Below are positions 1 to 24,750 of a stretch of 28,739 nucleotides of DNA, piece by piece. A model generated the notes under the pieces. The model saw only the letters and a program-made list of their open reading frames with translations. It was not told where the DNA came from and did not search any database. The translations under genes were made by a program, and so were the position numbers. The DNA is taken from positions 1 through 28,739 of the IMG/VR virus record IMGVR_UViG_3300031951_000926; one strand, given 5' to 3'. Source of the stretch: a virus. Numbering within the stretch: position 1 is the first letter of the stretch; each line of letters starts with the position of its first letter.

Positions 1-1552
1 GAGCGAAATCCTGCATGGAAGCAGGCGATTTAACGTCGATGGTAAACGCACGGACAGGCCCAAACTTTTCAGCTTCGGTTTTATTCTTGGTAAACCAAGA
101 CCCCGGAGTGGATCCAATCGTCGGATCGAATACAGGAATCTCTCCCTGCTTAGTACCGTGATAAAAAATTTCTGATTCAGGTGGTGCAACTTGCGCCGCT
201 TCCGGCACTCGAACAGGCTCAGTCTCCGCCAACGCCTCGGGCGTCAAGAACGGATTGACGAGCTTAGGCCGTGCCGTCTCAACCGGCGGCGTTTCAATAG
301 TCGGGGCTTCAACAGTCTCGGGAGCTAAGGCGCGGCGGAGCAACGGCTCCACTTCTGCACGAGTCGTCGATTTATCTACGCTCTCATAGCCCAATTTGCG
401 GGCAACCGCACGAGCCTTGAAGAGATCAAACTTTTTGTCGCCTTCAAACTTGGCAACGAGTTCGGCTGCTTCCTCAACTGCACCGGGCTGCGGCTCAGCG
501 GTCTGCTCAAAAGCCCGTACTTCGCGGGTAGGAACTTCTTCTGCCTTGGGTGCACTTGGCACCAAACCTTGCAGTTCTTCCAGCGTCTTGGCACGGATGG
601 GTGCAGCACGAGTCGGAGTGCCTTTAGGCGCAAGTTGCTCCGCAGTTAATTCAGGCTCAGCCGGTTCTTCGGGCGGGGCTTCTTCGGTCGGTTCTGCCTC
701 GGGACCACGCAATCTACGACCCAAGGCCAAGTCAGCAATCGCACTGACCACAGCACCGGCTCCACCACCCAATGCAGCAGCTTCACCAACACCGCCGAAC
801 ACGGCCTCATCAGGTGCATACACACCCTTGGCAATGAGGTTCTGGAGGACTTGGCCACTCGCTTCCGTCAGGGCTTCTTCACCACCTGCCCGAGCAGCAC
901 GACGCAACGCCGGGACAAACCCAGCAACTTCCTTGACGGCCTCATCACCGAAGCCGAACCGACGTAGGATTTTTATTGGTGCATACAGTTCAAGCGCACC
1001 GGGGATCGTGCCCAACGCCGTGGCTGCACCACGCTCACCCTCAGTAGCACCAGCCCGTTCAGCCCGTTGCCTAGCCTCACCTGCACCTGCTGCAACAGTA
1101 GTCGCGGCTGCCCCTGCTACACCAAGCGGACCCAAAGCCAATAGGCCAAGAGTAGGTAGTGTAGAGCCTACCGCTTCACTAACTCCACGAACCGCCGTAT
1201 CTTCATAGCCCGCAGCAGGAGCCAAGAACTCTCGGGCTGGCTGGGTTACGCCAGTCACTGCCTCACGGACAGATTGCTCAGCCTCTTCAGGAAGGAGTGC
1301 AGCCGCACCCGTAACCGCTGTTTCGCCAAGCCCGACAACGCCAGCACCCAGTCCCTTCAGGGTCTCCTTGGCATAACCGCCTAGGGTACGTTCGGGTTCA
1401 GCAGCAGGGGCACGTTCGAGGTGCCGAATCTGTTTACCTTGAAAGTCCCGTGCAGCCCGTGCAGCAACCTGCTCAGGCGTAGCATCCTCGGGCACACTTC
1501 GGTATTCGTGCCTTGAACCGTCTGCAAAATAGACGGTTATGTTCCTAGCCAT
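1..1552 (-). CDS. Large internal/polyvalent phage protein with ADP-ribosyltransferase-like domain (C-terminus beyond window)
   Basis: The frame is open from an ATG at 1552 to the left edge (517 codons, no stop), so the gene is cut by the window. The ATG overlaps the stop of the preceding gene (TAATG). Residues 1-48 form a small beta-rich domain (starts MARNITVYFADGS, then TPEQVAARAARDF) of the kind seen at the N-terminus of long phage virion proteins. Residues 60-260 are Ala/Gly-rich with hydrophobic stretches. Residues 265-460 are Pro/Glu-rich and probably disordered. From about residue 460 the sequence turns into FYHGT (H465), then GSWFT (485-488) and AEKFG, followed by a strand (AFTIDVKSP). 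This matches the first two blocks of ADP-ribosyltransferase folds in phage polyvalent proteins. The third block with the catalytic Glu would lie outside the window. I infer a protein ejected with the DNA that modifies a host target; the target is unknown. Confidence 0.8.
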   Translation of the reverse strand, partial: MARNITVYFADGSRHEYRSVPEDATPEQVAARAARDFQGKQIRHLERAPAAEPERTLGGYAKETLKGLGAGVVGLGETAVTGAAALLPEEAEQSVREAVTGVTQPAREFLAPAAGYEDTAVRGVSEAVGSTLPTLGLLALGPLGVAGAAATTVAAGAGEARQRAERAGATEGERGAATALGTIPGALELYAPIKILRRFGFGDEAVKEVAGFVPALRRAARAGGEEALTEASGQVLQNLIAKGVYAPDEAVFGGVGEAAALGGGAGAVVSAIADLALGRRLRGPEAEPTEEAPPEEPAEPELTAEQLAPKGTPTRAAPIRAKTLEELQGLVPSAPKAEEVPTREVRAFEQTAEPQPGAVEEAAELVAKFEGDKKFDLFKARAVARKLGYESVDKSTTRAEVEPLLRRALAPETVEAPTIETPPVETARPKLVNPFLTPEALAETEPVRVPEAAQVAPPESEIFYHGTKQGEIPVFDPTIGSTPGSWFTKNKTEAEKFGPVRAFTIDVKSPASMQDFA

Positions 1553-3303
1553 TACTGATCCCAGCCGCTAGACGAATACGGCCCAGTATACGCTCCCCCG
1601 GTCAAACCTTGATCCTGTGCTATACGCGGACCTGCGCCCATTGTGCCCACAGCTTGAGCTTCCATGACCCGCATAGCCTGACGAGCATCGTCGCGCTCTT
1701 TTTCCGTTTCGGCATTCTGTGCAATCCGCTGCATCCGCATGTACATCGGGTTCTTGGCCAGATTAGCCAGTCGGGTATCTGCCGCAGTGCCTGCACGAAT
1801 TTCAGCCGAAACGCCGCCCGCCGTGGTTGCAATCGTGTTCTGCCGCATCGCTTCACGATACTGCTCGTAATAGTCCATCTTCTGTTCTTTCTTAGATGGA
1901 TCTGTTTCAGATATCGCGTCCTTCCAGAGCTTATTGAGTTCATCTACGGCTTTCTCGTTGCCATAACGACGAAGCTCGGCCAGCGTAAGGTCATGCTGAC
2001 GGTCAAGTACTTTCTGCTGAATGCCGACTCGGGCTTCGAGGATCTTGAAGTTCGTGTTTCTGGCACGTTCATTCAGCACATCGAAGCGATCCTGATCCGC
2101 CTGACTACCCGACTCCATCGCCTGCTCTTGAGCACGACGTAACTGAATCTCTTGCAGCCGAAGCTGCTTCGACTCGTCCTTCAGGGTTTTAAGGTCGCGT
2201 ACCAAACCACCGTAGTTCTCCTTGACACTCTCGCCTAACGCACCCAAAAAGCTCGGACTCTTGTTAGCCATGAGCGATGCACCGGTCATGACCCAGAAGT
2301 TACGGTAAGCCTGTTTCTCATCCCCGCCCTTATCTTTCTGCTCTTTGATGTATGCAGCCAAATCAGCATCGGCCTGACTATAGGCACCTGTCTTAGTAGC
2401 CTTCTGCCGCTCTTCACGTTCGGCTCGAATCTTCGCCAAATCTGGCGTTTCCATCTCGTACTGCGTGAACACATCACCTTTGGGTGCAGTCTGCGCTACA
2501 CGAGGCCGTGCAGGAGCAGCGGGTTTTGCTTCTTGTACAGGCGGCGCTGCGGGGCGAGTTGCCATCTGACTAAAGACGCCCTGCAAATTTTCATCCGGAG
2601 AAGCAAACGGACTCGTTGCACGGAATGGCATATCCGGCGCAGGTTTTTCTGAACTTAACGGTGCTGGAGCAGCCTCAACTGGTCCCGCTACACCACGTTG
2701 TTCTAAAGTGTTTCTGGCAGCACGAGCACGCATATAGACAGGCTCGAACTGCTTCAAAACTTGCGCTTTTTGATCAGCCGACAAAGTGTCAAAGTTCGGC
2801 ATCTGCTTACGGACGAACGACACGATATCCATGTCTTCGTTCATGAAGGACGGAACTTGCGCTTCTAGGTCATCGTTAAATTCGTAAGGCTTGGTCGAAC
2901 CTGTACCGCCAGCACTAAATGCAACAATTCCACCGCCCGCAAACTGCGGGTACTCCATGCGACCAGCGTCAATCGCACCAAGCCCACGGTCCATCGGCTG
3001 ACCTGCCGGAGGCGGAGCCTGCATACCCGCAATACCACCTTGCTGAGCCTGCATCTGCTGCTGTTGATCAGCCATGTTCAACTGATCTTTAATCGTCGGC
3101 GGCGTTTGCGGAGGTTGAACCTGTTGCTGCTTCAGTCGCTGGAACTGATTCATCATGGCGTAGAGATCAGCCAGAGGAGCCACGCCCTGCGTAGCCATGC
3201 CTTTGACGTACTGAATCGCCTGATCAGGCGGCATACCTTTGGACATGGCCTGCTGAAGTGAGGCCATCATCGCACGACCCGTACCGCTAACTGGACCGAT
3301 CAT
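1552..3303 (-). CDS. Internal virion / ejection-type protein, 583 aa
   Basis: The function is not proven. The N-terminal 60 residues are helical and Met/Gln-rich, followed by a Pro/Gln-rich linker. The motif YPQFAGGGIVAF (about 118-129) recurs in proteins of this type in aquatic phages. Residues 150-200 look helical, and 200-275 is a Pro/Ala-rich linker. Residues 330-345 (FWVMTGASLM) are hydrophobic. From about 360 to 550 there is a long, highly charged helical, coiled-coil-like region with many Glu, Arg and Gln. The start ATG lies 3 bases after the stop of the 709-aa gene, and its own stop overlaps the next ATG, so the two are coupled. Position among other long low-complexity proteins downstream of the tail genes suggests a packaged protein released during DNA entry. 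A scaffold or tail accessory role is possible. Confidence 0.75.
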   Translation of the reverse strand: MIGPVSGTGRAMMASLQQAMSKGMPPDQAIQYVKGMATQGVAPLADLYAMMNQFQRLKQQQVQPPQTPPTIKDQLNMADQQQQMQAQQGGIAGMQAPPPAGQPMDRGLGAIDAGRMEYPQFAGGGIVAFSAGGTGSTKPYEFNDDLEAQVPSFMNEDMDIVSFVRKQMPNFDTLSADQKAQVLKQFEPVYMRARAARNTLEQRGVAGPVEAAPAPLSSEKPAPDMPFRATSPFASPDENLQGVFSQMATRPAAPPVQEAKPAAPARPRVAQTAPKGDVFTQYEMETPDLAKIRAEREERQKATKTGAYSQADADLAAYIKEQKDKGGDEKQAYRNFWVMTGASLMANKSPSFLGALGESVKENYGGLVRDLKTLKDESKQLRLQEIQLRRAQEQAMESGSQADQDRFDVLNERARNTNFKILEARVGIQQKVLDRQHDLTLAELRRYGNEKAVDELNKLWKDAISETDPSKKEQKMDYYEQYREAMRQNTIATTAGGVSAEIRAGTAADTRLANLAKNPMYMRMQRIAQNAETEKERDDARQAMRVMEAQAVGTMGAGPRIAQDQGLTGGAYTGPYSSSGWDQ

Positions 3304-3306
3304 TTC

Positions 3307-5436
3307 TTAACCCCCAGTGGTTTGGCCAAGGCCGCCGAACAAACCGCCGACACCCATCATACCGGCACCGGCAATCTGGTTGAATATACTCGGAGCCTGC
3401 TGGTACATAGATCTAGACGCATCCGTTGGTAAGCCGCGCAAAATGCCCATTGCAAACTCAGCTTGCTTATACGGGAACTGCTGCTGATTAATGAAGTCCT
3501 GATACTGCTGATTGAGCATCTGTTGGTTGAATGCCTGTTGCTGGCCGCCCATGCCCAACTGACCCTGCGTGATGCCCATCTGCTGACCAAACTGTTGCTG
3601 GCCAAGATTACCAAGCATACCCGCTGAAGCCAGACGCTGTTGCAGACCTTGCATACCCAATCCAGCCCCAAACTGACGAGACTGCTCGGCAAGATTCGCA
3701 CCGGCCAGACCGTACTGAGCGCGTTGCGCCGCATTCTGCTGCGAGAACTGATTAGCCTGAGCCAACTGTGCCAGCATTTGCTGCTGAGCCTGAAGCTGCG
3801 CGGCCTGATTCATCTGCTGGGCTTGGAGACCCTGACCCGCACCAAACTGCGACTGATTGATCAATGCTTGAAGGTTAGTTTGACCCGTCTGCTGCCGCGC
3901 CGCTTGGTTGGCAAGTTGTGCCTGCAACGACTGTTGAGCACCAAGCCCCTGAGTCTGTAGCAGCGCAGCCAAGTTTTGCTGACCCGTAGTGAGTCCAGCC
4001 TGTTGGTTGGCGAGAGCCGCCTGAAGACCCTGCTGACTCAAAAACTGCTGACGGGCTTGTTCAGCAGACAGATTCTGCTGACCCACATTGAAACCCATCT
4101 GCTGATTAGCCAACGCCGCTTGCATGGCTTGCTGGGCACTGAGTCCCTGAGTCTGCAAAGCCGCAGCCAGATTCTGTTGTTCAGTAGTAAGACCAGCCTG
4201 CTGGTTAAGACGCTGGGCCTCCATACCGGCCTGTTGATTAGCCAGTGCAGCCTGCTGCTCGGCAGACAAGTTTTGTTGTCCAACCGTAAGACCCGCTTGC
4301 TGATTAGCCAGCGCAGCCTGAAGTCCAGACTGAGTTCCCAACTGCTGTACGCCAAGAGCAGCGGCCAGATTCTGCTGACCCGTGGTCAGTCCAGCCTGCT
4401 GGTTAGCCAACGCAGCCTGCATCATTGCAGCACGGTCTTGACCAAACTGACTTGAGGCTTGTTGGTAAGCCTGCTGAAGACCTTGCGACTCAATATCGCC
4501 AAGACGCTCGGCCAAACCACGACGCGCCTCAGACTGCATCAATGCTTCACGAGTACCACCCTTGGCACCAGCACGAGCAGCGGCAGCGCCCATACCGGGA
4601 ATCTGCCGCATATAGTCTTGAACTGCACCGCGCTTCTGGGATTCCACGACACCCTGCATATAGGGCGACATGTATTCCTGCATCGCACCAAGGCCGAATC
4701 GCTCCGCGCCAACGCGCTCTGCCGGACCCATCTGGTACTGTTGCAATGAACCGATACCGACACGCTCGGGGCCAGCCATACGCGCCGCAGCAATACGCTC
4801 AGCACCCACATCACGTGGGCCTTGCATACGGAAACGTTCAAGTTGTTGGGCCTGAACATCCGCAGGGCCGGTCATACCTAACTGGCCGTATTCCCGCGCT
4901 CTTACATCAGCAGGACCCTGCATTTGCAGGCGTTCGAGTTCTTGTGCTCTTACGTCTCCCGGCCCTTCCATCTGGAACTGGGTAGCCGCAGCGGGGCCAA
5001 CACGCTCAAAGTCCGTCTGCATCCGTTGGAATTCAGGCGAGTCATAGAAGTTTTGAGCAGCAGCCGGGTTGTATTGCGAAAGTCGTGAGGCATCTTGACC
5101 AGCAGAACTAGCAAGCCGACTTGCTTCATCCAACTGCCGACTGGTCTGCATCCCAGCCATGCGATCAAACGCTTGCTGCTGCATCGGGGTGAATTCAGCA
5201 AAACGCTGCCCCGGTTGCATAACAGGCTGGCCTTTTTCATCTTTGACGATGTTGCCTTGAGCATCCCGCTTCGGGACCATGTAAGGCTGATAACCTTGTC
5301 CGACAAGACCGGGAATAAATTTTCCCGTTGTTGGGTCTTGCCCACCAAACACACTACCCAGCAACTGCTGAGCGTAGGGCTGCATCCATGCAGGTATGTT
5401 GGACTGGACTTGTTCGACGTATTGTGGCGTAGCCAT
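3307..5436 (-). CDS. Glutamine-rich repeat protein, probable internal virion/ejection protein, 709 aa
   Basis: The ATG at 5436 is preceded by GGGAG at good spacing. The N-terminal 100 residues look globular (IPAWMQPYAQQLL, FTPMQQQAFDRMAG). Residues 156-251 hold six 16-residue repeats with the core GPxDVxA. Residues 258-340 look helical. Residues 341-604 hold 24 uninterrupted 11-residue units rich in Gln, Ala and Leu, predicting a long helical rod. The segment YQDFINQQQFPYKQAEF (644-660) resembles a conserved stretch in phage internal proteins. The C-terminal 30 residues are Gly/Met-rich and hydrophobic, so they may insert in a membrane. Together with its long neighbours this suggests part of the DNA ejection apparatus. 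There are no catalytic motifs, so the role is inferred from composition and position only. Confidence 0.8.
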   Translation of the reverse strand: MATPQYVEQVQSNIPAWMQPYAQQLLGSVFGGQDPTTGKFIPGLVGQGYQPYMVPKRDAQGNIVKDEKGQPVMQPGQRFAEFTPMQQQAFDRMAGMQTSRQLDEASRLASSAGQDASRLSQYNPAAAQNFYDSPEFQRMQTDFERVGPAAATQFQMEGPGDVRAQELERLQMQGPADVRAREYGQLGMTGPADVQAQQLERFRMQGPRDVGAERIAAARMAGPERVGIGSLQQYQMGPAERVGAERFGLGAMQEYMSPYMQGVVESQKRGAVQDYMRQIPGMGAAAARAGAKGGTREALMQSEARRGLAERLGDIESQGLQQAYQQASSQFGQDRAAMMQAALANQQAGLTTGQQNLAAALGVQQLGTQSGLQAALANQQAGLTVGQQNLSAEQQAALANQQAGMEAQRLNQQAGLTTEQQNLAAALQTQGLSAQQAMQAALANQQMGFNVGQQNLSAEQARQQFLSQQGLQAALANQQAGLTTGQQNLAALLQTQGLGAQQSLQAQLANQAARQQTGQTNLQALINQSQFGAGQGLQAQQMNQAAQLQAQQQMLAQLAQANQFSQQNAAQRAQYGLAGANLAEQSRQFGAGLGMQGLQQRLASAGMLGNLGQQQFGQQMGITQGQLGMGGQQQAFNQQMLNQQYQDFINQQQFPYKQAEFAMGILRGLPTDASRSMYQQAPSIFNQIAGAGMMGVGGLFGGLGQTTGG
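3625..4416 (-). repeat. 24 tandem 33-bp units encoding 11-residue repeats
   Basis: Within the 709-aa protein (residues 341-604) the sequence divides exactly into 24 units of 11 residues with no insertion or deletion. Most units group in threes (33 residues, 99 bp) whose first unit resembles AALANQQAGLT, the second TGQQNLAAALQ and the third TQGLGAQQSLQ. Early groups have two or four units. Eleven residues are close to three helical turns, so this is a hendecad-type helix pattern. The last groups are more diverged than the first. Confidence 0.85.
4684..4971 (-). repeat. Six tandem 48-bp units encoding 16-residue repeats
   Basis: Residues 156-251 of the 709-aa protein. Each unit starts with Met followed by GPxDV or GPERV (for example MQGPADVRAREYGQLG). 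The sixth unit is shifted by one residue and the last two are the most diverged. This is a second, independent repeat class in the same protein. Confidence 0.85.
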
Positions 5437-5448
5437 GATCGCTCCCGA

Positions 5449-8400
5449 TTAAGCAGGTAACAGTCGGTCAGTCTTTACCGCAGGGGCTTGTCTAGTTTTG
5501 CCCGTACGCGCTTTCCGAACCTGCGCCATCATTTGATACAGTTTTTTGGCCCCTGCCTTGGTGGAGCCATTACCGAGATGCGATACCACATCAGCCGGGA
5601 TGACGAACTCGCCATCTGCCAACGCAGCACGTTGTACACCCTTACCGCGAATTACGGCAGGAATATCGTCGGACATACCGTCGCCGGGGCCATCTAACAA
5701 CTTACCGCCAGCTTTGTACTCCGACATACCACCGCCAGCGAATCCAAAGTTGTAGTCATCACCAACGGCACCGCCGTCAGCAAACGGCGTGATGATCCCG
5801 TAAGGATTCTGAGCCTGCATGAAATCAGCAAGAGCGCGTGGGTCAATATCCTGCCCCATGCCTTGAGTGTTAGCTTGCTGAGTCTGCTGAGCACCGGCTG
5901 GAGCATTACCCGCATAGACAGGTCTTTCGCTGACAATTTTGAACTTCTTGTCGCCCTTAACCTGCGCGTTGCTAATCGGTTTACCCTGCATGAAGTTATA
6001 GATCAAGTCCGTCATCATGAAGTCTTGAATGCGTCGAGCGTCCGCATCCTTCGGACCTGATCCCATGCTGTTCAGCCAAGGCTGTACTGCCTTCTGATAA
6101 ATCTCTTCAGGCGTGGCGTCCTTTGACACCGTGCCATCTTGCACAGCCTTATTTACGACTTGCGTCATGTCGTAGACAAAATCTTCGTTGCCCTTGCGCC
6201 CGTACTTCTCTTGACCAGCAAACTCGTTTTTGTTGGTGCGGTAGAAGTTGATGAAACCGTTTGCAAGTTCTTCAGGCGGCGCACTACCGATACCGCGACC
6301 TTGATCAACCGCTTTCCAGTAGTTACGCAGAGCAACGTCACCTTGCTCCTTGGTATTAACAAGCGAAGCACCGATTGCTGCAACCGCAGCGGCAGCAAGA
6401 CCGACCGGACCGAAGCCAGCAAGAGTTGTTAAACCCGCACCGCCAAGTCCTGCTGCTCCTGCCAAGTAAGCACCACCCGCACCAGCCAACGCACCACCGG
6501 CAGCGGCCTGACCTTCCTTGCCCTTACGGATACCTTCATATGCCTGATGAGCGCCGTATAGTGCAGCCAAGCCAGCCGCAGTTGTACCCAGAGGAGTCGC
6601 ACCACCTTTAAGTGCAGATGCCCCCGCAGCACTACTCCCACCGCCACCAGCCGCAGTACCACCAGCCGCAGTACCACCAGCCGCACCAGTAGTGGCTCCC
6701 GTAGCCCCAGTAGCAGCACCCGCCGCACCAGCAGCACCCGTTGCGGCACCAGCCGCGCCAGCACCACTGGCAACAACAGTGCCGTCCATAAGAGTGATGG
6801 TTAGCAGACCTTGCTTAGCAGCAAGTGCCTTTGCCGCTGCAATAGCAGCCGCGCTAGTACCACCAGCAATTACGATATTTTTAACAGGATCAAAGCGAGG
6901 TTGCCCTTCTCCACCAGTCTGCTGCTGATTCTGCTGTTGTTGATTCTGGTTCTGATTCTGATTTTGGTTTTGTTGATTCTGGTTCTGGTTTTGATTTTGG
7001 TTTTGGGTGTTACCAGTATTAGTTCCAGTATCTGTTCCAGTACCAGTACCCGTTCCAGTGCCTGTACCAGCCTTCTCAGCATTCAAGAATGGACGATCGG
7101 CCCACTTCATACCGCTGGAAATCCAATCACGTAACGCAGCGGCATTACCCGGCTGCATCATCCAATTCATACCAACTTGTGTGGCAAGGAACGCAGCGAC
7201 ATCACCAGTACTGCCGCCGGTAGATGGTTGTTGGGTAGGTGGAGGAGTAAGCGGTCCGCCATACGGATTAGTGCCCGTCCACGGGGTATTCGTGCCGCCC
7301 AACCCACCGGCAAAGTTCATCCCATATGGGTTATTCACCGGGTTTAGAGCACGGCGATTCAGTTCTTGAACGTAAGCACGATTGGCAGCAACGTTCGGAT
7401 CTTCCCGAGTAGTGGCTGTTTCGAGAGGTGTCGTCGCGTTAACACCTACCGGAGCTACAAGTGGACGATACTCCGTATTGTCCCCCGGCGGTCCACGACC
7501 CTCCATAATCCGGATTTGCTCTTCCGGACTGACGCCAACAACTTCACCACCATCCGCAAAGCCACGTGCCCCCGGTGCCATCTGGAACGGGTTATGAGGC
7601 ACCATGCCTTTTGCTGTTCGTTTGTAATAGCGCCCCGGCAACTGATAAGGCTGATCTGCTCCAGTACCATATTGCGGGTTAAATCCGCCCGGAATGTAGA
7701 CGATATCTTCGCCCATGCCCGGAACATTGATTGGCTTAGGCTCCTCGGCAAACGGAAGCGCGGCACCAGCAAACGTGGCGTACTTGCTTAACGAACCGCC
7801 AAGGGAGTCCATGAAGGTCTTACCCGCGCCCTCCTGTCCCGTAAACACGTTGCGGATACCCTGACCAATCGCACCAAAATTAGAGGTAGGCGGCTTGACC
7901 GTAGTCTGAGCTTGAACTGCCGCTGCGCCTGTATTTGAGGCCGCCCAGTTCTGACGGGCAAGCGGATCCACATCAAACATCGTAGGCGCTTTACCGCCAA
8001 ACATGATCTGATCTTTCGTTGATGTAGGCGCAAACTGCGGGGTCGGAGGAGGCGCAGTCTTTACAGTACTCGGGGTTTCTACTGGAGCAGTCGGGGTTCC
8101 CGCTGCCTTAAACGCCCCCGCGATATTGGCTCCGCTGTACGCACCCAGACCCGCCATCAAACCCTTTTGCAGGTCGCCTTCGACCAACCCAGTTACCGCA
8201 CCCACCGTGGCAGCGGCAGTAAACGGATTCATACCAAACCCGCCCGTCAGCACCGCACCGGCAATCTGGGGCAAAATCTTCTTGAGGAACGAGAACTGGG
8301 GCTGGCCGGTCAGAGGATTGTAAAGATCGCTTTCCTGTGCGCCCATCGACCGAGCAAGTTGCTGGAGGCCCGACACCTCTTCGGGTGCCATATGCACAAC

Positions 8401-8490
8401 CATAGAGTCCCCGCCCTGTCCACGGGAGGCCAGAAGGGAGGCAATACCAGCCTCGGGGGGATCAGTGTATTTCGGGTCGTTGTTGTACAT
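5449..8490 (-). CDS. Long internal virion/ejection-type protein with NQ-rich linker, 1013 aa
   Basis: I chose the ATG at 8490 because GGGG lies about 5 bases upstream; a GTG six bases earlier (8496) is the alternative. The N-terminus PPEAGIASLL followed by VVHMAPEEVSGLQ is a signature I know from long proteins of aquatic phages. Residues 70-130 are hydrophobic and Gly/Ala-rich. FADGGEV occurs near 311. Residues 475-525 are a Gly-Thr then Asn-Gln tract. Residues 575-620 are AAG/ATG low complexity. Residues 635-710 are strongly hydrophobic Ala/Gly segments that could cross or perforate a membrane. A mixed alpha domain follows (715-840), then FADGGAV (903-909) and a conserved C-terminal block, GDGMSDDIPAVIRG then DGEFVIPADVVSHLG. 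The layout (two membrane-active zones, flexible linker, conserved tail) suits an ejection protein; this is inference. Confidence 0.8.
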   Translation of the reverse strand: MYNNDPKYTDPPEAGIASLLASRGQGGDSMVVHMAPEEVSGLQQLARSMGAQESDLYNPLTGQPQFSFLKKILPQIAGAVLTGGFGMNPFTAAATVGAVTGLVEGDLQKGLMAGLGAYSGANIAGAFKAAGTPTAPVETPSTVKTAPPPTPQFAPTSTKDQIMFGGKAPTMFDVDPLARQNWAASNTGAAAVQAQTTVKPPTSNFGAIGQGIRNVFTGQEGAGKTFMDSLGGSLSKYATFAGAALPFAEEPKPINVPGMGEDIVYIPGGFNPQYGTGADQPYQLPGRYYKRTAKGMVPHNPFQMAPGARGFADGGEVVGVSPEEQIRIMEGRGPPGDNTEYRPLVAPVGVNATTPLETATTREDPNVAANRAYVQELNRRALNPVNNPYGMNFAGGLGGTNTPWTGTNPYGGPLTPPPTQQPSTGGSTGDVAAFLATQVGMNWMMQPGNAAALRDWISSGMKWADRPFLNAEKAGTGTGTGTGTGTDTGTNTGNTQNQNQNQNQNQQNQNQNQNQNQQQQNQQQTGGEGQPRFDPVKNIVIAGGTSAAAIAAAKALAAKQGLLTITLMDGTVVASGAGAAGAATGAAGAAGAATGATGATTGAAGGTAAGGTAAGGGGSSAAGASALKGGATPLGTTAAGLAALYGAHQAYEGIRKGKEGQAAAGGALAGAGGAYLAGAAGLGGAGLTTLAGFGPVGLAAAAVAAIGASLVNTKEQGDVALRNYWKAVDQGRGIGSAPPEELANGFINFYRTNKNEFAGQEKYGRKGNEDFVYDMTQVVNKAVQDGTVSKDATPEEIYQKAVQPWLNSMGSGPKDADARRIQDFMMTDLIYNFMQGKPISNAQVKGDKKFKIVSERPVYAGNAPAGAQQTQQANTQGMGQDIDPRALADFMQAQNPYGIITPFADGGAVGDDYNFGFAGGGMSEYKAGGKLLDGPGDGMSDDIPAVIRGKGVQRAALADGEFVIPADVVSHLGNGSTKAGAKKLYQMMAQVRKARTGKTRQAPAVKTDRLLPA
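6637..6768 (-). repeat. Ala/Gly/Thr low-complexity tract
   Basis: Encodes about residues 575-618 of the 1013-aa protein as short imperfect units such as GAAGAATGA and GGTAA, just before the hydrophobic Ala/Gly region. It is imperfect at DNA level. Confidence 0.7.
6916..7068 (-). repeat. Microsatellite-like tract encoding Gly-Thr then Asn-Gln repeats
   Basis: Encodes about residues 475-525 of the 1013-aa protein: a GT-dipeptide run followed by an NQ run with short QQQ interruptions. The DNA is a near-hexanucleotide repeat on both halves. It joins the N-terminal half of the protein to the hydrophobic C-terminal half, so a flexible linker is the simplest reading. Confidence 0.85.
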
Positions 8491-8524
8491 ACTCACCCCA
8501 CGGGGTCAAGTTCGGTAGATAGTA

Positions 8525-14986: not shown

Positions 14987-15592
14987 TTAATCCCTCAAAT
15001 GTAAACCGGTTAGAGACTTCTCATCCCCAACGTAACCAACAGGAAACGTGTTAAACGACAAACTGATCCGAGTGTCTTCGCCCTGCACGGTCTGAACCAT
15101 GTGCGTGAGGCTAGACGGGAACAGGATCAACTCTTTTGCAACTGCTTCAAACCACCAAGACTCGGAGTTGTACAAGTTCCAGTTCTCGGTCGGTAGGCTG
15201 ATCTGCTTGTAGCCGTCCTTGTAGAAATAGATCTTGTCCGATTCTTTGTTGGCTTTGATGTAAAGCACACCAGAGACAAAAGAGTTTGGATGAGCGTGTT
15301 TGTGATGCCACTGTCCGGGCTTGGTGTAGTTCAACCAAGACTGCGTGATCCGAAGGTTTACGTCCTTGCTCGGGGCATGGATCTCCTTCAGGTACGTCGC
15401 AACAGATGCCTCACAAAAATCGCTCAAGCCCTTCAACTCAATGTTGTTGAAGACGTAGTTATCGTCGCTTGTCGTGTTGCCTTCGTTGTTGTGCTGAGAT
15501 TGTTTCAGCACGAACTCCAACTCCCGCTCCGTGAACTCACGGTCGAGGTTGAACCGGGCAACCGGTGTTGGGAATATCCCGTGCAGAATCAT
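14987..15592 (-). CDS. 2OG-Fe(II) oxygenase family protein, 201 aa
   Basis: The start (MILHGIFPTPVARFNL) and the core match the phage-encoded putative 2OG-Fe(II) oxygenases. The metal site is probably H99/H101 (HAHPNSFVSGVLYI) and H164 (FPSSLTHMV), with R175 (TRISLSFN) as 2-oxoglutarate ligand. The usual HxD is replaced by HxH followed by PNS, as I recall for this subfamily. The protein length is typical. The ATG overlaps the preceding stop (ATGA). Such enzymes hydroxylate a protein, nucleotide or small molecule; the substrate here is unknown. Its position between adhesin and fibre genes makes modification of a tail protein one possibility. Confidence 0.85.
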   Translation of the reverse strand: MILHGIFPTPVARFNLDREFTERELEFVLKQSQHNNEGNTTSDDNYVFNNIELKGLSDFCEASVATYLKEIHAPSKDVNLRITQSWLNYTKPGQWHHKHAHPNSFVSGVLYIKANKESDKIYFYKDGYKQISLPTENWNLYNSESWWFEAVAKELILFPSSLTHMVQTVQGEDTRISLSFNTFPVGYVGDEKSLTGLHLRD

Positions 15593-15837
15593 GCAGCCGC
15601 CTGTTCAATTTGTTTGGCGTACTCGTCAAAAGCCTTCTGCTGCTCCGGCAACAGGATCGTGGGAACCGCATCTTCCAGTTCCTTGATCTTTTCAATCGTG
15701 AACATGATCTCTTCCCACGAGGGCTTCGGACGCGGATCTTCCCACCGCGTGATCTCACGATTGCTGATTTCCCACTTCGCACCCGGACGAAGCAAGTGCA
15801 TCGCCGTGTCAATACCCATGATTTGATACGCTTTCAT
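15589..15837 (-). CDS. Small helper-like protein next to adhesin, 82 aa
   Basis: The ATG at 15837 overlaps the stop of the 1053-aa adhesin gene (TAATG), and its own stop overlaps the oxygenase ATG (ATGA). The sequence KAYQIMGIDTAMHLLRPGAKWEIS, then ITRWEDPRPKPSWEEI, then a charged helix to the end is a form I have seen directly downstream of phage fibre genes. Size, helix content and position suggest an assembly helper for the neighbouring glycine-rich protein, but this is inference and no assay-backed family name is recognised. Confidence 0.75.
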   Translation of the reverse strand: MKAYQIMGIDTAMHLLRPGAKWEISNREITRWEDPRPKPSWEEIMFTIEKIKELEDAVPTILLPEQQKAFDEYAKQIEQAAA

Positions 15838-18800
15838 TAGAAATTCACCTTGAGAATTACGATACCTGAACCACCTGCGCCGCCAGCAAAAACGGTATCT
15901 CCTGCGTTATGACCGCCACCTCCACCTCCACCGCCAGTATTGGCGGTACCTGCTGTTCCAGCCGCGCCTAATCCACCTGCACCGCCGCCACCGGAACCGC
16001 CCGATCCTGCGTTAGTTGATGACCGCCAATTTGATCCGCCACCGCCGCCAGCATAAGTAACTGATGAGCCACTAATGGACGAAACAGTACCATTGCCTCC
16101 GTTACCGCCGTTCGTAGAAGTTCCATCTGCGCCTACGGCAGACGCTCCACCGCCACCACCTGCTCCGTAATTCGGAGTTGTAGCAGGTGCGCTTCCTCCA
16201 TTATTACCTTGAGATGGCGAAGTATTTGGCGTATTTCCTGCCGCACCCGGTATAGCCCCCGGAATACCAGCCGCTGCTCCACCACCACCAGAGCCGCCTG
16301 TTTGAGCGGCCGTTAATGTTCCTGCACCACCCCCGCCGCCAGCAGAGGTAATAGTGCTAAATACTGAATTTGAACCAGACGTTCCGCCGTTACTTCCAAC
16401 AATTACCGCAGGGCCACCGGCCCCACCAGCCCCAACCGTAATCGTATAAGAAGTTCCCGCTGTTATAGAAAGTCCCGTTCCAGTGCGGAACCCACCGGCT
16501 CCACCACCGCCAGCAGAATCTCCACCGCCGCCACCACCACCGGCTACAACCAAATAATCCACGCTCACCGCACCAGCCGGAGCCGTCCACGATTCTGTCG
16601 CAGTGAAGGTGTAAAGCAGGTAATTGTTGAAGTTCAACTTCAGGATGACTACGCCGGAGCCGCCTGCTTTTCCGAGGCCGTTGTTTGAACATCCACCGCC
16701 GCCGCCACCACCTGTGTTGGCAGTTCCGGCAGTTGCATTGTCTTGACCGCTTTGTCCAACGCCGCCCTGTCCGCCTCCGCCAGAGCCGCCAGAAGCCGCA
16801 GGAGATACTGCCCCGCCACCACCGCCACCACCGGCATACGTTACGCTACTGCCAGAAATAGATGATGCGGTTCCAGCGCCACCAGCACCACCACTAGCAT
16901 TTGTTAACGCAGTAGAACTCGTACCAGTTGCACTTGCTCCACCACCACCGCCACCAGCGTTATTGGCGGCTCCTGCTGGAGTTCCGGTATTTCCATTTCC
17001 ACCACTTGATCCTTGAGATGGATTTACAAATGGAGTGTTCCCAGCGCCGCCTGTTCCTCCCGAGGCGGGAGAGTTGTTTGATCCACCGCCACCGCCAGAA
17101 CCACCAGCAATACCGTTATTTTGATATGCGCCGCCGCCACCGCCGCCCGCGCTAGTAATTGTACTAAATACCGAATTGCTGCCTGCTGATCCATTATTTG
17201 ACCCGCCTGCCGCGCCGCCGTTACCCCCAGCGCCAACGGTGATTGTGTAAGTAGATCCCGGCGTAACGGTCAAACCGGTTCCAGTACGCATACCCCCCGC
17301 ACCGCCACCACCAGCCGCGTTTGTTCCACCTCCACCACCTCCCGCAACCACGAGGTAATCCACACTGCTGACACCAGCAGGCATCACAAAGTTGGTGGTT
17401 GAGTTGAACGTCAGGATCGAAGCAGTACCCAGTGTGTACTTGATGAGGACGATGCCGGAGCCGCCTGCAAATCCATTTACCGAACCGCCACCGCCACCGC
17501 CTCCAGTATTAGTGGTTCCAGCAGTTCCAGAAGAACCACCATTTCCACCACCGCCTGATCCGCCATTGCTAGGTGTAGTTCCTAGACTTCCCCCGCCGCC
17601 AGCGTAAGTAACGCTCCCCCCAGAAATAGAAGACGCTGTGCCAGCACCGCCAGCCCCAGCAGCAGCCGGAGATGCAGTTGCAGCGCCACCTACCGCGCTT
17701 GCGCCACCACCACCGCCACCTTGCCCAGTTCCACTTGCGTCTGCGCCTGCCCCGCCGTTATTACCTTGGCTTGGCGCAACAGATGGAGTATTTCCATTGC
17801 CAGCCGTACCGGTGTACCACGCACCGCCACCAGAACCGCCGTTTCTACCGTTAAAGTTTGAGCCGGAGCCACCGCCGCCACCGCCAGTTGATGTGATAGT
17901 GCTAAATACGGAGTTATTACCATCCCCGCCTTGGTTTCCGATAGCAGTTGATCCAGTTCCACCAGCACCAACGGTAATGGTGTAAGAAGTTCCAGCAGTA
18001 ACGCTAAATCCAGTTCCGGTGCGGAATCCACCGGCACCACCACCTGCGCCGTTATTTCCACCACCTGCACCACCCGCTACAACGAGATATTCAACCTCGC
18101 TCACACCAGTCGGCGGAACAAAGATTCCGGATGCAGTGAAAGACTGAACTACGGTCTGAACAGGGACTGCGTAGCGAAGAATGACGATGCCGGAGCCGCC
18201 TGCACCAGAATTCTGCCCTGCTGCGGCGTAAACGCCAGCGCCACCACCACCAGTATTAGCAGTTCCTGATTGAGCAGGATTGTTAGCAGAGCCGCCACCG
18301 CCAGAGCCGCCAGTTCCTCCGGTGCCTGCAACATACGGCGCTCCACCGCCGCCACCAGCGTAGGTTACAGAACTTCCAGAGATAGATGACGCGGTTCCAT
18401 TTCCTCCGTTGCCGGAATTTGTGCCGTCGCCAGTTCCACCGACAGCAGACGCGCCGCCGCCACCGCCGGAACCAAAGTTTGGGCCAACCCCAGCAGGGCC
18501 ACCCGCGCCACCATTATTTCCTTGGCTTGGAGCCGTACTCGGCGTGTTACCAGCGCCACCCGCGCTGCCGCCATAACCGCCGCCGCCGCCAGAACCGCCA
18601 GCATTGCCACTTGAGGAATTGTATCCATTTCCACCACCACCGCCGCCGGTGCTAGTTATGGTGCTAAACGAACTGTCACTACCATTACCACCCGCTGAAT
18701 CAGAAGTAATGGATTTTGCGGCACCGCCAGCGCCAACAGTAATCGTGTAATTTGTGCCAGCCGTTACAGAAAAACCTGTGCCGGTACGGAATCCACCAGC

Positions 18801-18998
18801 GCCGCCACCACCGGCTCCGCTACGTTGAGGCGAGGATGTAGCAGACCCACCACCACCGCCGCCACCCGCAATGACAAGGTATTCAACCTCAGTCACGCCA
18901 GTAGGAGCCACCCACGAGCCTGTAGTCGTGAAGGTTTTGACTTCAACATATCTAGTGCCGACGACACGCGCCAGCAAAAGCATCATGATGCCGGACAT
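15837..18998 (-). CDS. Glycine-rich adhesin-type tail protein, four modules, 1053 aa
   Basis: The ATG at 18998 overlaps the preceding stop (TAATG). A short lead (MSGIMMLLLARVVG) is followed by four copies of one module at residues 20-276, 286-521, 529-790 and 796-1053. Each module runs: beta strands (APTGVxEVEYLVVAGG), poly-Gly, GGFRTGTGxSVTAGTxYTITVGAGG, VFSTITSxGGGG, GNTPxxxPSQGNNGG, GGGGGASAVG, TASSISGSSVTYAGG, TANTGGGG and a closing strand SGIVILK. Long Gly runs recall the polyglycine-II lattice of the S16 distal adhesin, but the sequence is not the same protein. I infer a surface-exposed receptor-binding or tail protein whose variable loops lie between Gly runs. Confidence 0.82.
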   Translation of the reverse strand: MSGIMMLLLARVVGTRYVEVKTFTTTGSWVAPTGVTEVEYLVIAGGGGGGGSATSSPQRSGAGGGGAGGFRTGTGFSVTAGTNYTITVGAGGAAKSITSDSAGGNGSDSSFSTITSTGGGGGGNGYNSSSGNAGGSGGGGGYGGSAGGAGNTPSTAPSQGNNGGAGGPAGVGPNFGSGGGGGASAVGGTGDGTNSGNGGNGTASSISGSSVTYAGGGGGAPYVAGTGGTGGSGGGGSANNPAQSGTANTGGGGAGVYAAAGQNSGAGGSGIVILRYAVPVQTVVQSFTASGIFVPPTGVSEVEYLVVAGGAGGGNNGAGGGAGGFRTGTGFSVTAGTSYTITVGAGGTGSTAIGNQGGDGNNSVFSTITSTGGGGGGSGSNFNGRNGGSGGGAWYTGTAGNGNTPSVAPSQGNNGGAGADASGTGQGGGGGGASAVGGAATASPAAAGAGGAGTASSISGGSVTYAGGGGSLGTTPSNGGSGGGGNGGSSGTAGTTNTGGGGGGGSVNGFAGGSGIVLIKYTLGTASILTFNSTTNFVMPAGVSSVDYLVVAGGGGGGTNAAGGGGAGGMRTGTGLTVTPGSTYTITVGAGGNGGAAGGSNNGSAGSNSVFSTITSAGGGGGGAYQNNGIAGGSGGGGGSNNSPASGGTGGAGNTPFVNPSQGSSGGNGNTGTPAGAANNAGGGGGGASATGTSSTALTNASGGAGGAGTASSISGSSVTYAGGGGGGGAVSPAASGGSGGGGQGGVGQSGQDNATAGTANTGGGGGGGCSNNGLGKAGGSGVVILKLNFNNYLLYTFTATESWTAPAGAVSVDYLVVAGGGGGGGDSAGGGGAGGFRTGTGLSITAGTSYTITVGAGGAGGPAVIVGSNGGTSGSNSVFSTITSAGGGGGAGTLTAAQTGGSGGGGAAAGIPGAIPGAAGNTPNTSPSQGNNGGSAPATTPNYGAGGGGGASAVGADGTSTNGGNGGNGTVSSISGSSVTYAGGGGGSNWRSSTNAGSGGSGGGGAGGLGAAGTAGTANTGGGGGGGGHNAGDTVFAGGAGGSGIVILKVNF
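15840..18941 (-). repeat. Four tandem glycine-rich modules (about 235-260 aa each)
   Basis: Approximate module limits on DNA: 18171-18941, 17436-18143, 16629-17414 and 15840-16613. Short linkers of 5-10 residues separate them. Conserved landmarks occur in the same order in each, while the segments between Gly runs differ in sequence and length. Confidence 0.85.
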
Positions 18999-19476: not shown

Positions 19477-21204
19477 TTAATAGTTTACTTTTAGGATCAC
19501 GATACCGGAACCGCCTGCTGCACCATTTCCGTAAGGGGCTTCAGAACCAGCGCCCCCACCCCCACCCGTGTTGGCTGTTCCAGCGGTGTTTGCGTTACCG
19601 CTGTTTGAGCCATTGCCACCGCCACCTGTGCCACCTGTACCGCGTGTTCCCGGTGAAAAAGTGCCGCCACCACCACCACCAGCATACGTTACGCTGCTGC
19701 CAGAAATAGACGAGGCCGTGCCGTTACCACCGTTACCGCCGTCGGAATTGGTTCCGTTTGAACCAGTTGCGGAAGCACCGCCGCCGCCTGCGCCACCATA
19801 GTTAGGCGCATTACCCCCAGAACCACCATTGTTTCCTTGAGACGGTGAGGTATTTGGGGTATTTCCAAGGCCAGCATTTGCGCGGTTTGCACCGCCGCCG
19901 CCAGAACCGCCATTTGCGCCAGCAGCAGGAGCATTCGGGAAGGCTGGACTATTTGAGCCACCGCCACCGCCGCCTGTAGCGGTAATAGTGCTGAACGTAG
20001 AATCGCTGCCGTTGATGGTCGTTACTGTAGTTGCCCCAGCGCCGCCACCGCCAACAGTAATCGTATATTCCGTTCCTGCTGTAATACTTAACGCGGTCCC
20101 CGTGCGGAAGCCGCCTGCCCCGCCGCCGCCAGCAGAAATGTACCCACCTCCACCACCCCCCGCAACAACGAGGTAGTCAACGCTTACCGCACCAGTCGGG
20201 GCTATCCATTTCTGAGTAGATTTAAACGTGAATATGGTTGTAGTTAATGGCGCTAAATATTTGAGAACGACGATGCCGGAGCCGCCCGTGCCCCCAGTTT
20301 GTACGGCTGATCCGTTGTAGGCACCGCCGCCTCCACCACCACCGGTATTGGCTGTGCCACTTACTCCTTGGTAAGCGGGACTCGTAGTGTTATCGCCGCC
20401 TTTTCCACCGCCGCCTGACCCACCTGTGCCGCCAGTTTGCGGAGTATTGCGTTGATCACCAGCACCGCCACCACCACCTGCGTAGGTTACAGATGACCCA
20501 GAAATAGATGACGCAGTACCGGCACCGCCATCTCCACCCTTCATGTTTGGTGCGGTAACAGAAGCATCGCCACCAATAGCAGAAGCGCCGCCGCCTCCAC
20601 CACCAGCAATAATGCCTGTACCTACTACACCAGTACCACCATTACTACCTTGAGATGGATTTACAGAAGGAGTATTGCCACTACCACCGGGACCGGGAGT
20701 TACTGACTGTGATCCAGAACCGCCCCCGCCAGAGCCACCGTTACCACCATTACTAACAGCAGTATTAGTTGGATTTGAATAACTTCCGCCACCTCCACCA
20801 CCAGCAGAAGTGATGGTGCTAAATACAGAATCTGTACCAGATGCGGCCCTTGCTGCGCTTGTTGTGCCTGCCCCTCCGCCACCAACGGTAATGGTGTAAT
20901 CAGTCCCTGCGGTAACACTTAATCCTGTGCCTGTTCTAAAGCCTCCAGCACCGCCGCCACCACCAAAAGAACCACCACCGCCGCCACCTGCAACGACAAG
21001 GTATTCAACTTCAGTTACACCAGTCGGGGCAGTCCAAGTGCCAGAGGCAAGAAAGGTTTGAATAATGGTGACAGCCGGAACAGGCCACGTTCCCGCAGCG
21101 CGATAAGGCAGAGCCTGACTTAAAAGCCAAACTCCTTTAGCAGAAGACGCACTAACTGTAGGCGCAGCCGCTCGTATGACTCCGCCTGTATATCGCAGGG
21201 TCAT
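19477..21204 (-). CDS. Glycine-rich adhesin-type tail protein, two modules, 575 aa
   Basis: The start is the ATG at 21204, overlapping the preceding stop (TAATG) with GAAGAG upstream; a TTG six codons earlier is unlikely. The N-terminal 48 residues (TLRYTGGVIRAAAPTVSA, then GVWLLSQAL) differ from the 1053-aa protein and may be the virion anchor. Two modules follow (residues 49-316 and 324-575) with the same ordered landmarks as in the 1053-aa protein. Its last module shares with the last module of that protein the opening GAVSVDYLVVAGG and the ending SGIVILKVN. Likely an adhesin or tail protein, and a paralogue of the downstream one. Confidence 0.82.
   Translation of the reverse strand: MTLRYTGGVIRAAAPTVSASSAKGVWLLSQALPYRAAGTWPVPAVTIIQTFLASGTWTAPTGVTEVEYLVVAGGGGGGSFGGGGGAGGFRTGTGLSVTAGTDYTITVGGGGAGTTSAARAASGTDSVFSTITSAGGGGGGSYSNPTNTAVSNGGNGGSGGGGSGSQSVTPGPGGSGNTPSVNPSQGSNGGTGVVGTGIIAGGGGGGASAIGGDASVTAPNMKGGDGGAGTASSISGSSVTYAGGGGGAGDQRNTPQTGGTGGSGGGGKGGDNTTSPAYQGVSGTANTGGGGGGGAYNGSAVQTGGTGGSGIVVLKYLAPLTTTIFTFKSTQKWIAPTGAVSVDYLVVAGGGGGGYISAGGGGAGGFRTGTALSITAGTEYTITVGGGGAGATTVTTINGSDSTFSTITATGGGGGGSNSPAFPNAPAAGANGGSGGGGANRANAGLGNTPNTSPSQGNNGGSGGNAPNYGGAGGGGASATGSNGTNSDGGNGGNGTASSISGSSVTYAGGGGGGTFSPGTRGTGGTGGGGNGSNSGNANTAGTANTGGGGGAGSEAPYGNGAAGGSGIVILKVNY
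19480..21060 (-). repeat. Two tandem glycine-rich modules
   Basis: Approximate limits 20257-21060 and 19480-20235. Same landmark order as the four modules at 15840-18941, giving six copies in the window. Confidence 0.82.
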
Positions 21205-21578
21205 TAGTTGATCTCTTCCCAAGAGGCAACAACAACAAGATCGCTGGCAGTGCCAGCCGTCGCGCCAATAGACTGATCTTCCTTCAAGTAGATTGAAGTG
21301 TTTTTGTCAATCACTACTAACGTCGCATCAGCAGGAACAGATACTGTGGAAGCCAGCGCATAAGCCGTACCGCCTAGGTCATCCTGACTGTAGACATTGA
21401 TCGTGATATCGGCAGCAGAAGCACCATCCACGTTCGCCACAATAATGCTATTGATCTTGAAGACCTTGCCGCTAGATGCAGCGTTGTTCACGATAGCCGT
21501 TGCGTTCGTGGTGGTCAGTGATGTCAGTGAATTGTTCCCGTAGATTGCGGAAACGCTGACAATGTTTGGATTCGCCAT
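21204..21578 (-). CDS. Small virion protein, 124 aa
   Basis: I chose the ATG at 21578 because GGAGG lies 8 bases upstream; a longer reading would start inside the preceding gene. The protein (ANPNIVSVSAIYGNNSLTS, then GKVFKINSIIVANVDGASAADITINVY, ending ASWEEIN) is beta-rich and close in style to small structural proteins of marine cyanophages and pelagiphages that lie among fibre genes. It is coupled to the two-module glycine-rich gene. Probably a decoration or fibre-base protein; the exact role is unknown. Confidence 0.78.
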   Translation of the reverse strand: MANPNIVSVSAIYGNNSLTSLTTTNATAIVNNAASSGKVFKINSIIVANVDGASAADITINVYSQDDLGGTAYALASTVSVPADATLVVIDKNTSIYLKEDQSIGATAGTASDLVVVASWEEIN

Positions 21579-23609: not shown

Positions 23610-24112
23610 CACGTAGTCACCGGAAGCTTATTAGATTTACGCCGATTTTCAGACATCAGCACTACACGCAAATTTAAAGGAACATGTAACCCTGATACCG
23701 ACTTACCGCGTAAAGGTAGTAAGTGATCTACTTCCCAAGATGCCCCGGTTAATTTAGACCGTAAAACGGCAAGGTCATAAATTTCGTTAATCAACCAGTG
23801 ATGTTCAGTTCCGGGTCTTGCCCATACGGGAGTAGCTTTTGTCTTTGCAGCATAACGCCTAGCGGTACGGGCGTTAACAGCACCACGATTACGTTTCACC
23901 CATGCAGTACATTTTTTATTGTGGCGCTCCCGATTTGCGTCCGCCCAATCCAAAGCACGCTTAATAACTTTGTCTTTGTTGCGATCGTAGTAGCCGTACA
24001 TGTAATGATTTACGCAGGGCTTACAGAGATTTCTGTACCCGTCTTTACGACTTTTGTCCCGATGAAATTCGGTAAGTCGTTTTAATTCATTACATTTGCT
24101 GCAAGTTTTCAT
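23609..24112 (-). CDS. HNH endonuclease with N-terminal zinc module, 167 aa
   Basis: C4-C7 and C30-C33 form a zinc-binding module (CSKCNE, then CKPC). A basic helical region follows (40-95). The nuclease core reads WEVDHLLPL (D129-H130), GLHVPLNL (H143, N147) and ENRRKSNK (N156, N161), a clear HNH signature. It would cut DNA with a divalent metal. Both ends overlap neighbouring structural genes by stop/start overlaps, so it is translated with them. Freestanding HNH genes between structural genes are usually mobile (homing-type) insertions. The sequence here is visibly richer in A and T than its neighbours. Confidence 0.9.
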   Translation of the reverse strand: MKTCSKCNELKRLTEFHRDKSRKDGYRNLCKPCVNHYMYGYYDRNKDKVIKRALDWADANRERHNKKCTAWVKRNRGAVNARTARRYAAKTKATPVWARPGTEHHWLINEIYDLAVLRSKLTGASWEVDHLLPLRGKSVSGLHVPLNLRVVLMSENRRKSNKLPVTT

Positions 24113-24750
24113 GATGTAACTGGGATACGCGCCTGCCCAGAACGGTAAGCATCTTGTCGATTGAGTCCATCGCCCAACCGCATAAGTTGCTGCACTGCCT
24201 CTTGATATCGCTGTTCGTAGTAATTCATCATGTCTTGTTCACCCTTCAGGTACACATAAGCTTCCCGAAGACTTCCGTACAACAAGACATTCTCGTAGTT
24301 ATCGCCTAGCCACGAAGTACCTGCATTTACAATAGAAGCAGGATACGAATAATAGTGCAATTCAGCCGTGTACGCGAGGTCTGGCGCAGGGCCAAGAATC
24401 ATCGTGTTGTCATCCCAGATAGCGTAATACTTGGGTAACCCAGTATCGTCTGCATCCGGGTACGCCTGACGAATATAGTTCACATCCTTATTCAGCAGGT
24501 ATGTGTATTCGTTATTGGACGGATTGAACACCGCCAAAGAGAACGTCGAAAGCCAGTCAGACGGGAGGGCCATGTACTTGTTCCCAATCGACATCGTGGC
24601 AGTCGAGTTCTTACGAATCGCCGGGATCTGAACGGAGTTATAAATCCGCTCTTCAGCTAACTGCACAAAAGTCGGGATATTCGCCACGAAAGAAGTTTCC
24701 GTGGACTGAACGTAGTCCTGAATCAGTGTAGAAAGCTGAGAGTAATTCAC
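24109..24750 (-). CDS. Head-tail adaptor protein, 213 aa
   Basis: The start is a GTG at 24750, coupled as GTGA to the upstream stop. The N-terminal helices (NYSQLSTLIQDYVQS, then FVQLAEERIYNSVQIPAIRK) followed by YMALPSDWLSTFSLAVF, PKYYAIWDDNTMILGPAPD and a tyrosine-rich helical end (GSLREAYVYLKGEQDMMNYYEQRY) match the phage adaptor family of SU10- and T7-like podoviruses (gp11-type). That protein forms a ring below the portal and receives the tail nozzle. It fits with the neck-like protein upstream and the nozzle downstream. Confidence 0.85.
   Translation of the reverse strand: MNYSQLSTLIQDYVQSTETSFVANIPTFVQLAEERIYNSVQIPAIRKNSTATMSIGNKYMALPSDWLSTFSLAVFNPSNNEYTYLLNKDVNYIRQAYPDADDTGLPKYYAIWDDNTMILGPAPDLAYTAELHYYSYPASIVNAGTSWLGDNYENVLLYGSLREAYVYLKGEQDMMNYYEQRYQEAVQQLMRLGDGLNRQDAYRSGQARIPVTS

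What the first reader, a model, noticed from the sequence alone, without database searches (positions are those of the whole stretch)
1..1552. Edge-truncated phage protein with ADP-ribosyltransferase-like start, possible ejected effector
The frame is open to the left edge, so an ORF search that needs a stop codon would miss it. It joins a small beta domain, Ala/Gly-rich hydrophobic regions, a Pro/Glu linker and a domain with FYHGT and GSWFT. That order matches phage polyvalent proteins, which are packaged and ejected and can modify host targets. The gene is the last of four long proteins placed where ejection proteins are expected. The catalytic Glu lies outside the window, so activity is not shown.
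Basis: partly seen in the sequence, partly recalled or inferred. Interest (0 to 1): 0.8.

Follow-up and report, generated by a model that had tools for sequence, protein, structure and literature searches.

The report
Truncated phage-ejected ADP-ribosyltransferase fusion protein
The left edge of this phage fragment holds the first part of a very large protein, probably packed in the virus particle and injected into the bacterium, that carries an enzyme domain likely to tag host proteins with ADP-ribose; proteins of this kind are already known, and this one helps show that the domain sits in a swappable slot.

Summary
ORF 2..1552 (-) codes for 517 residues and runs off the left end of the record, which is the whole IMG/VR contig. 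It is a real gene: relatives share about 68-81% identity over the N-terminal region, and codon changes show purifying selection. The edge domain (residues ~460-517) is the N-terminal part of an ART-PolyVal ADP-ribosyltransferase. Pfam's partial hit is below its cut-off, but two relatives with the whole domain (L035, 63% identical to the window; L102) pass it clearly. The L035 domain folds as an ART. Its best solved match, ahead of PARPs, diphtheria toxin and AcrIF11, is a protein in the pre-ejectosome of podophage A-4L. Full-length relatives are 2064-2644 aa polyvalent proteins, so the ART here is probably internal, not C-terminal. It sits in a hypervariable slot between conserved flanks, where relatives carry ParB-like, YkuD-like, GHKL-ATPase or other sequence. 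One clear ART presence/absence pair exists (L046/L052). Most likely the protein is packaged and ejected, and the ART modifies a host target early in infection. Activity, target and packaging are not shown for this phage. Published work gives Asp, not Glu, as the third catalytic residue. New member of a known kind.

The parts
2..1552 (-). 5' part (517 aa) of a giant polyvalent-protein gene, open at the record's left end; its ATG overlaps the TAA stop of the upstream gene (TAATG)
   Evidence: the start-on-stop overlap is also seen in L002, L005, L037, L012
1412..1552 (-). N-terminal small beta-beta-alpha-beta domain (residues 1-47); a different first ~45 residues is found in L009, L010, L011/L012 and L035
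   Evidence: strands 3-9, 14-20, 42-47, helix 26-36, pLDDT ~80
704..1390 (-). Ala/Gly-rich, predicted mostly helical, hydrophobic region (residues 55-283), the part most widely conserved in relatives (replaced in L005)
   Evidence: dN 0.125, dS 0.86 against L002 over the N-terminal 283 codons
518..703 (-). Pro/Glu-rich linker (residues 284-345), predicted disordered
   Evidence: pLDDT mostly below 50
320..517 (-). helical mini-domain (residues ~346-411), conserved in L002, L003, L005 and L037
   Evidence: pLDDT blocks 87-96
176..319 (-). second Pro/Glu-rich linker (residues 412-459), start of the hypervariable slot
2..175 (-). N-terminal part of an ART-PolyVal domain (residues 460-517), cut by the contig edge; Pfam-matched core is bases 59-169
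158..160 (-). H465 of FYHGT, motif I histidine
95..97 (-). W486 of GSWFT, motif II aromatic position (Tyr in Iyer's description; Trp also in L018, L031, L034, L035, L102)
1552..3303 (-). 583 aa gene directly upstream, conserved partner of the giant gene; no family match of weight
3307..5436 (-). 709 aa Gln/Ala-rich repetitive protein, conserved synteny, 65 related loci
5449..8496 (-). 1015 aa Gly-rich protein, conserved synteny; likely virion-internal by position only

Best explanation
The gene encodes a giant polyvalent protein of a podophage-like virus. Its N-terminal domain, long hydrophobic helical region and linkers probably form the part that is packed with the internal ejection proteins. 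In the hypervariable slot after them sits a compact ADP-ribosyltransferase of the ART-PolyVal (Tox-ART-HYD2) family. After delivery with the DNA the ART is expected to use NAD+ to ADP-ribosylate a host protein, to help the incoming genome (as T4 Alt does for RNA polymerase, or AcrIF11 for Csy1). Shown here: the gene is real and under purifying selection; the domain is an ART fold by homology; relatives are polyvalent; gene order is conserved; an ART fold exists inside a solved podophage pre-ejectosome. Inferred: that this protein is full length in the real genome, packaged, ejected, active, and what it targets.
For: ART-PolyVal partial hit E 1.1e-4. Closest complete domain L035, 63% identical to the window fragment, E 1e-18, 68.9 bits against a cut-off of 31.2; L102 61.6 bits. 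L035 model pLDDT 83.5; top PDB match 9k3a_B residues 1418-1601, Z 8.9, 114 aligned, rmsd 3.4; then PARPs, diphtheria toxin and 6kyf at Z about 6. 9k3a_B matches Anabaena phage A-4L ORF27L over all 1717 residues, which is encoded next to an M23 peptidase gene among the virion genes of that phage. In L102 the same ART sits in a 465 aa protein directly after a T7-gp16-like internal virion protein with endolysin domain (phrog_342, E 4.7e-22). Relatives carry LPD38/LPD39, HEXXH and DarB-like regions. dN 0.245, dS 1.75 between the window and L035 ART codons.
Against: The window contains less than half of the ART and not its third motif; its own Pfam score (23.4) is below the gathering cut-off (31.2). 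Motif II is Trp, not Tyr. No experiment shows packaging or activity for this lineage. The A-4L domain is a fold match, not an assayed ART; the deposition calls the chain a 'Tail protein'. VIA Z 8.9 is only modestly above the background of 7-8 stated by the tool.
Confidence: 0.72

Rival explanations
1. The ART fold is present but catalytically dead or purely structural in the ejection complex.
For: Motif II is Trp; one related domain (L011/L036 residues 820-967) has lost the motif I His and scores below the family cut-off (29.6 bits), so decay or change happens in this family. The A-4L domain is resolved as part of an assembled pre-ejectosome.
Against: His in FYHGT and the following motif are kept in window, L035 and L102, and the codons are under purifying selection. 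Trp at the motif II position recurs in other members, some over the cut-off.
Confidence: 0.15
2. The protein is a short one that ends soon after the ART, as in L102 (465 aa), not a giant polyvalent protein.
For: L102 carries the same ART in a 465 aa protein; L035's contig ends soon after its ART in a Pro/Ala repeat, so its length is unknown.
Against: The window N-terminal region (residues 1-406 or more) is 67-71% identical to giants L002, L003 and L037, and every uncut relative with that N-terminal region runs to at least 1,970 aa.
Confidence: 0.12
3. The ART acts as an anti-defence enzyme against a specific host immune protein (AcrIF11-like), not as a general reprogrammer of the host. This is a narrower form of the best explanation and not exclusive of it.
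For: AcrIF11 (6kyf) is the second Foldseek hit, E 1.5e-3. DarB-like antirestriction parts sit in the same proteins of the sister group. The slot varies like an arms-race locus.
Against: Fold similarity gives no target; PARPs and diphtheria toxin match equally well by Z.
Confidence: 0.3
4. Chance resemblance in Pro/Glu-rich sequence.
For: A home-made HMM without L035 gives only 9.5 bits.
Against: Pfam E 1.1e-4; 63% identity to a complete, over-cut-off ART domain.
Confidence: 0.02

Closest known systems
Polyvalent proteins of phages with ART-PolyVal domain (Iyer et al. 2017, PMC5512222; Pfam PF18760)
   Same: Very large multidomain phage proteins; ART of the H-Y-D type; LPD38/LPD39, metallopeptidase HEXXH and DarB-like parts in full-length relatives
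   Different: Window ART is compact (lacks the usual F..WFG.S..V...G.P lead-in) and has Trp at motif II; only the first 517 residues are known
Anabaena podophage A-4L ORF27L, chain B of the pre-ejectosome structure 9k3a (Hou et al. 2025, PNAS, citation seen in PMC12810830; the paper itself is not held)
   Same: Large protein encoded at the end of a run of virion genes; ART fold with YHGT and GTYFS; best structural match
   Different: 1717 aa, ART near the C-terminus; no Pfam match for its ART; no other sequence relation found
T4 Alt
   Same: Head-packaged, injected ART (literature)
   Different: R-S-E active site, another family of ARTs
AcrIF11 (6kyf)
   Same: Phage ART fold with proven NAD+-dependent modification of a host defence protein
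   Different: Free small protein, not shown to be ejected; its target cannot be carried over
DarB-like/PLxRFG giant proteins of Pseudomonas phage Skulduggery, Serratia phage Parlo, Klebsiella phages SopranoGao and LASTA, Sinorhizobium phage PBC5
   Same: C-terminal ~690 aa related to the C-terminal half of L004/L046 (24-27% identity)
   Different: Sister type of C-terminus; whether the window has this or the LPD38 type is unknown

Membership tests
ART-PolyVal (PF18760, Tox-ART-HYD2) | Profile score over the curated cut-off | tested here: inconclusive
   Window 23.4 bits over 38 of 140 positions, cut-off 31.2; truncated. Relatives L035 68.9 and L102 61.6 bits pass
ART-PolyVal (PF18760, Tox-ART-HYD2) | His in strand 1 | tested here: met
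   H465 in FYHGT, in strand 460-467 of the model
ART-PolyVal (PF18760, Tox-ART-HYD2) | Tyr in strand 2 | tested here: inconclusive
   Trp486 at this position; Trp also in L018, L035 and L102, which score over the family cut-off, so Tyr is not strictly required
ART-PolyVal (PF18760, Tox-ART-HYD2) | Asp in strand 5 | not testable with these tools
   Outside the record; L035 and L102 have FDGIRD and a GD before the closing strand
Phage polyvalent proteins | Several unrelated enzymatic or LPD domains in one chain | not testable with these tools
   Window shows only one; full-length relatives of the same N-terminus show LPD38, HEXXH, ParB-like, YkuD-like
Phage polyvalent proteins | Encoded among virion genes of a tailed phage | tested here: met
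   SU10 adaptor, structural, tail spike and endolysin genes on the same strand
Ejected internal virion proteins (ejectosome) | Present inside the virion and delivered to the host | not testable with these tools
   Needs proteomics; inferred from gene position, L102 context and 9k3a
Alt/VIP2-type R-S-E ARTs | Arg in strand 1 | tested here: not met
   Window has His in FYHGT at this position

The most novel reading that the evidence does not exclude
A podophage lineage uses one ejected scaffold protein with a fixed effector slot, into which enzyme cassettes (ARTs of different types, ParB-like, YkuD-like, GHKL ATPase) are exchanged within the lineage and across unrelated phages, so that delivery and payload evolve separately, much like polymorphic toxins but with the payload inside the chain.
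Probability: 0.4. Interest if true: 0.6.

Novelty: new member of a known kind. Interest (0 to 1): 0.42.

Why it matters
If right, it ties the predicted class of phage polyvalent ARTs to a physical delivery route: an ART-fold domain already visible inside a solved podophage pre-ejectosome. The set of relatives, including one pair that differs by presence or absence of an ART between well-conserved flanks (L046/L052), points to payload swapping on a conserved scaffold, which makes the question 'what does an ejected ART do for the phage' directly testable.

Tried and rejected
The DNA left of base 1 cannot be had: the record ends there. No match to the window protein or the ART fragment in 50,697 phage records; L035's ART finds only weak phage and plasmid matches. 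No prophage or host genome relative, so the host stays unknown. A degenerate DNA search for the FYHGTKQG motif found nothing. PDB sequence searches gave nothing useful for the window protein or the ARTs. PF03496 did not confirm the R-S-E-like pattern in L044 and L072. The 517 aa model is weak overall (pLDDT 61); its N-terminal domain aligns with T7 Gp2 and YkzG (Z 5.3 and 5.2, rmsd 1.9 and 1.8, 46 and 44 residues), which is within background for so small a fold and is kept only as a lead.

Full report
Observation. ORF 2..1552 on the minus strand starts with ATG, codes for 517 residues and leaves the record without a stop. The record is the window (28,739 bases, a virus record), so no sequence exists to the left. 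The ATG overlaps the TAA of the 583 aa gene upstream (TAATG); the same start-on-stop arrangement recurs in relatives L002, L005, L037 and L012. The motifs FYHGT and GSWFT lie at residues 463-467 and 484-488.

Is it real? The closest relatives share about 67-71% identity over residues 1-406 or more. Codon comparison with L002 gives dN 0.125 and dS 0.86 for the N-terminal 283 codons; the ART codons of window and L035 give dN 0.245 and dS 1.75. It is a protein under selection.

What the edge domain is. Pfam finds ART-PolyVal in residues 462-498, E 1.1e-4, profile positions 8-45 of 140, below the curated cut-off because only a part is present. A scan with the 63 edge residues found L035, whose domain is 63% identical to the window's and complete. 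L035 scores 68.9 bits (cut-off 31.2), and a second relative, L102, 75% identical to L035, scores 61.6. These make the assignment firm; a home-made HMM without L035 scores the fragment only just above shuffles. The L035 domain was modelled from a nine-row alignment that included the window fragment (pLDDT 83.5). Its best solved match is chain B of the cyanophage A4 pre-ejectosome, 9k3a, residues 1418-1601 (Foldseek E 4e-4; VIA Z 8.9, 114 residues, rmsd 3.4), followed by AcrIF11 (6kyf), PARPs and diphtheria toxin. By sequence, 9k3a_B is Anabaena phage A-4L ORF27L, encoded beside an M23 peptidase among that phage's virion genes, with YHGT and GTYFS in the matched stretch. Structures of viral proteins with similar folds are mostly annotated as PolyVal ADP-ribosyltransferases or unnamed giants.

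Active site. Iyer et al. 2017 (PMC5512222) describe polyvalent-protein ARTs as His in strand 1, Tyr in strand 2 and Asp in strand 5. The window shows the His (H465) and Trp486 at the second position; Trp is also found there in L018, L031, L034, L035 and L102. The third position lies outside the window. L035 and L102 have FDGIRD and a GD just before the closing strand (VVAVF or VAAVF, then .PEQIK); which of these acids is catalytic is not settled here.

The rest of the protein. Full-length relatives with the same N-terminal module are 2064 (L037), 2336 (L003), 2526 (L002) and 2644 (L005) aa. L002, L003, L005 and L037 share a ~1,420-aa C-terminal region at 76-84% identity with LPD38 and an HEXXH motif. 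Between N-terminal ~410-430 and that region lies sequence that differs in each: ParB-like in L002, a YkuD-like L,D-transpeptidase motif in L005, unknown in L003 and L037. L004/L046, L010/L052, L011/L036 and L012 share the Ala/Gly-rich region but have another, DarB-like, C-terminal type; L009 carries a GHKL ATPase. The window's ART lies at the start of this variable slot. In L046 a ~225-residue stretch with an ART is present where L052 has none, with flanks 74% and 90% identical, and a short repeat (Q-x-A-P-S) borders it. ART-PolyVal was found in 7 of 39 related records (L102, of another lineage, left out) and in the window, so it is an optional cassette.

Context. The order structural protein (~770 aa), 1015 aa, 709 aa, 583 aa, giant protein recurs in most of the 65 loci found with the 709 aa gene. 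The virus has SU10-type adaptor proteins, a tail spike, and a protein related to podophage stabilisation proteins. In L102, a different kind of podophage, the same ART sits in a 465 aa protein directly after a T7-gp16-like internal virion protein with an endolysin domain. Together with 9k3a this supports delivery from the virion, but packaging of the window's protein is inferred.

How it most likely works. Shown: the gene, its selection, its homology, its gene position. Inferred: during assembly the protein is packed with the internal proteins; at infection it leaves the head ahead of or with the DNA; the ART transfers ADP-ribose from NAD+ to a host protein. The target is unknown; T4 Alt (RNA polymerase) and AcrIF11 (Csy1) are the models (PMC5512222, PMC12421852).

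Novelty. Polyvalent ARTs were described in 2017; this is a new member. The compact form, the swappable slot across relatives and the match to a solved pre-ejectosome are the added value.

Noticed in passing
L044 residues ~421-495 and L072 residues ~652-725: An R-S-E type ART-like pattern (LYRG ... SY[ST] ... acidic-rich EEEILIP / EAEVIIP) in the variable part of giant proteins; Iyer 2017 says Alt-type ARTs are not found in true polyvalent proteins. PF03496 gave no hit.
   Followed up: partly
L103 20116-25269 (-), residues 1418-1601 (PDB 9k3a chain B): Anabaena phage A-4L ORF27L, deposited as a tail protein, has an ART fold with YHGT and GTYFS that Pfam does not recognise.
   Followed up: partly
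window 1412-1552 (-): The first ~47 residues fold as beta-beta-alpha-beta with weak likeness to T7 Gp2 and YkzG, both RNA polymerase binders; several relatives have a different N-terminal domain.
   Followed up: partly
L005 residue ~1127, L050 ~1129, L016-L018 ~1900-1968: YkuD-like L,D-transpeptidase motif (S[YF]GCINV) inside giant proteins.
   Followed up: no
L009 residues 627-700: GHKL/HSP90-like ATPase domain in the variable slot.
   Followed up: no
window 14987-15592 (-): 2OG-Fe(II) oxygenase (PF13759, E 2.7e-20).
   Followed up: no
window 15837-18998 and 19477-21222 (-): Two large tail-region proteins end in the same Gly_rich_2 domain (PF21722).
   Followed up: no
window 24109-24750 and 25519-26244 (-): Two separate SU10_adaptor hits, the second weak.
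   Followed up: no
window 28252-28698 (-): Endonuclease VII (PF02945) at the right end.
   Followed up: no
L084 residues ~1670-2182: At least two tandem ART-PolyVal copies in one giant protein.
   Followed up: no
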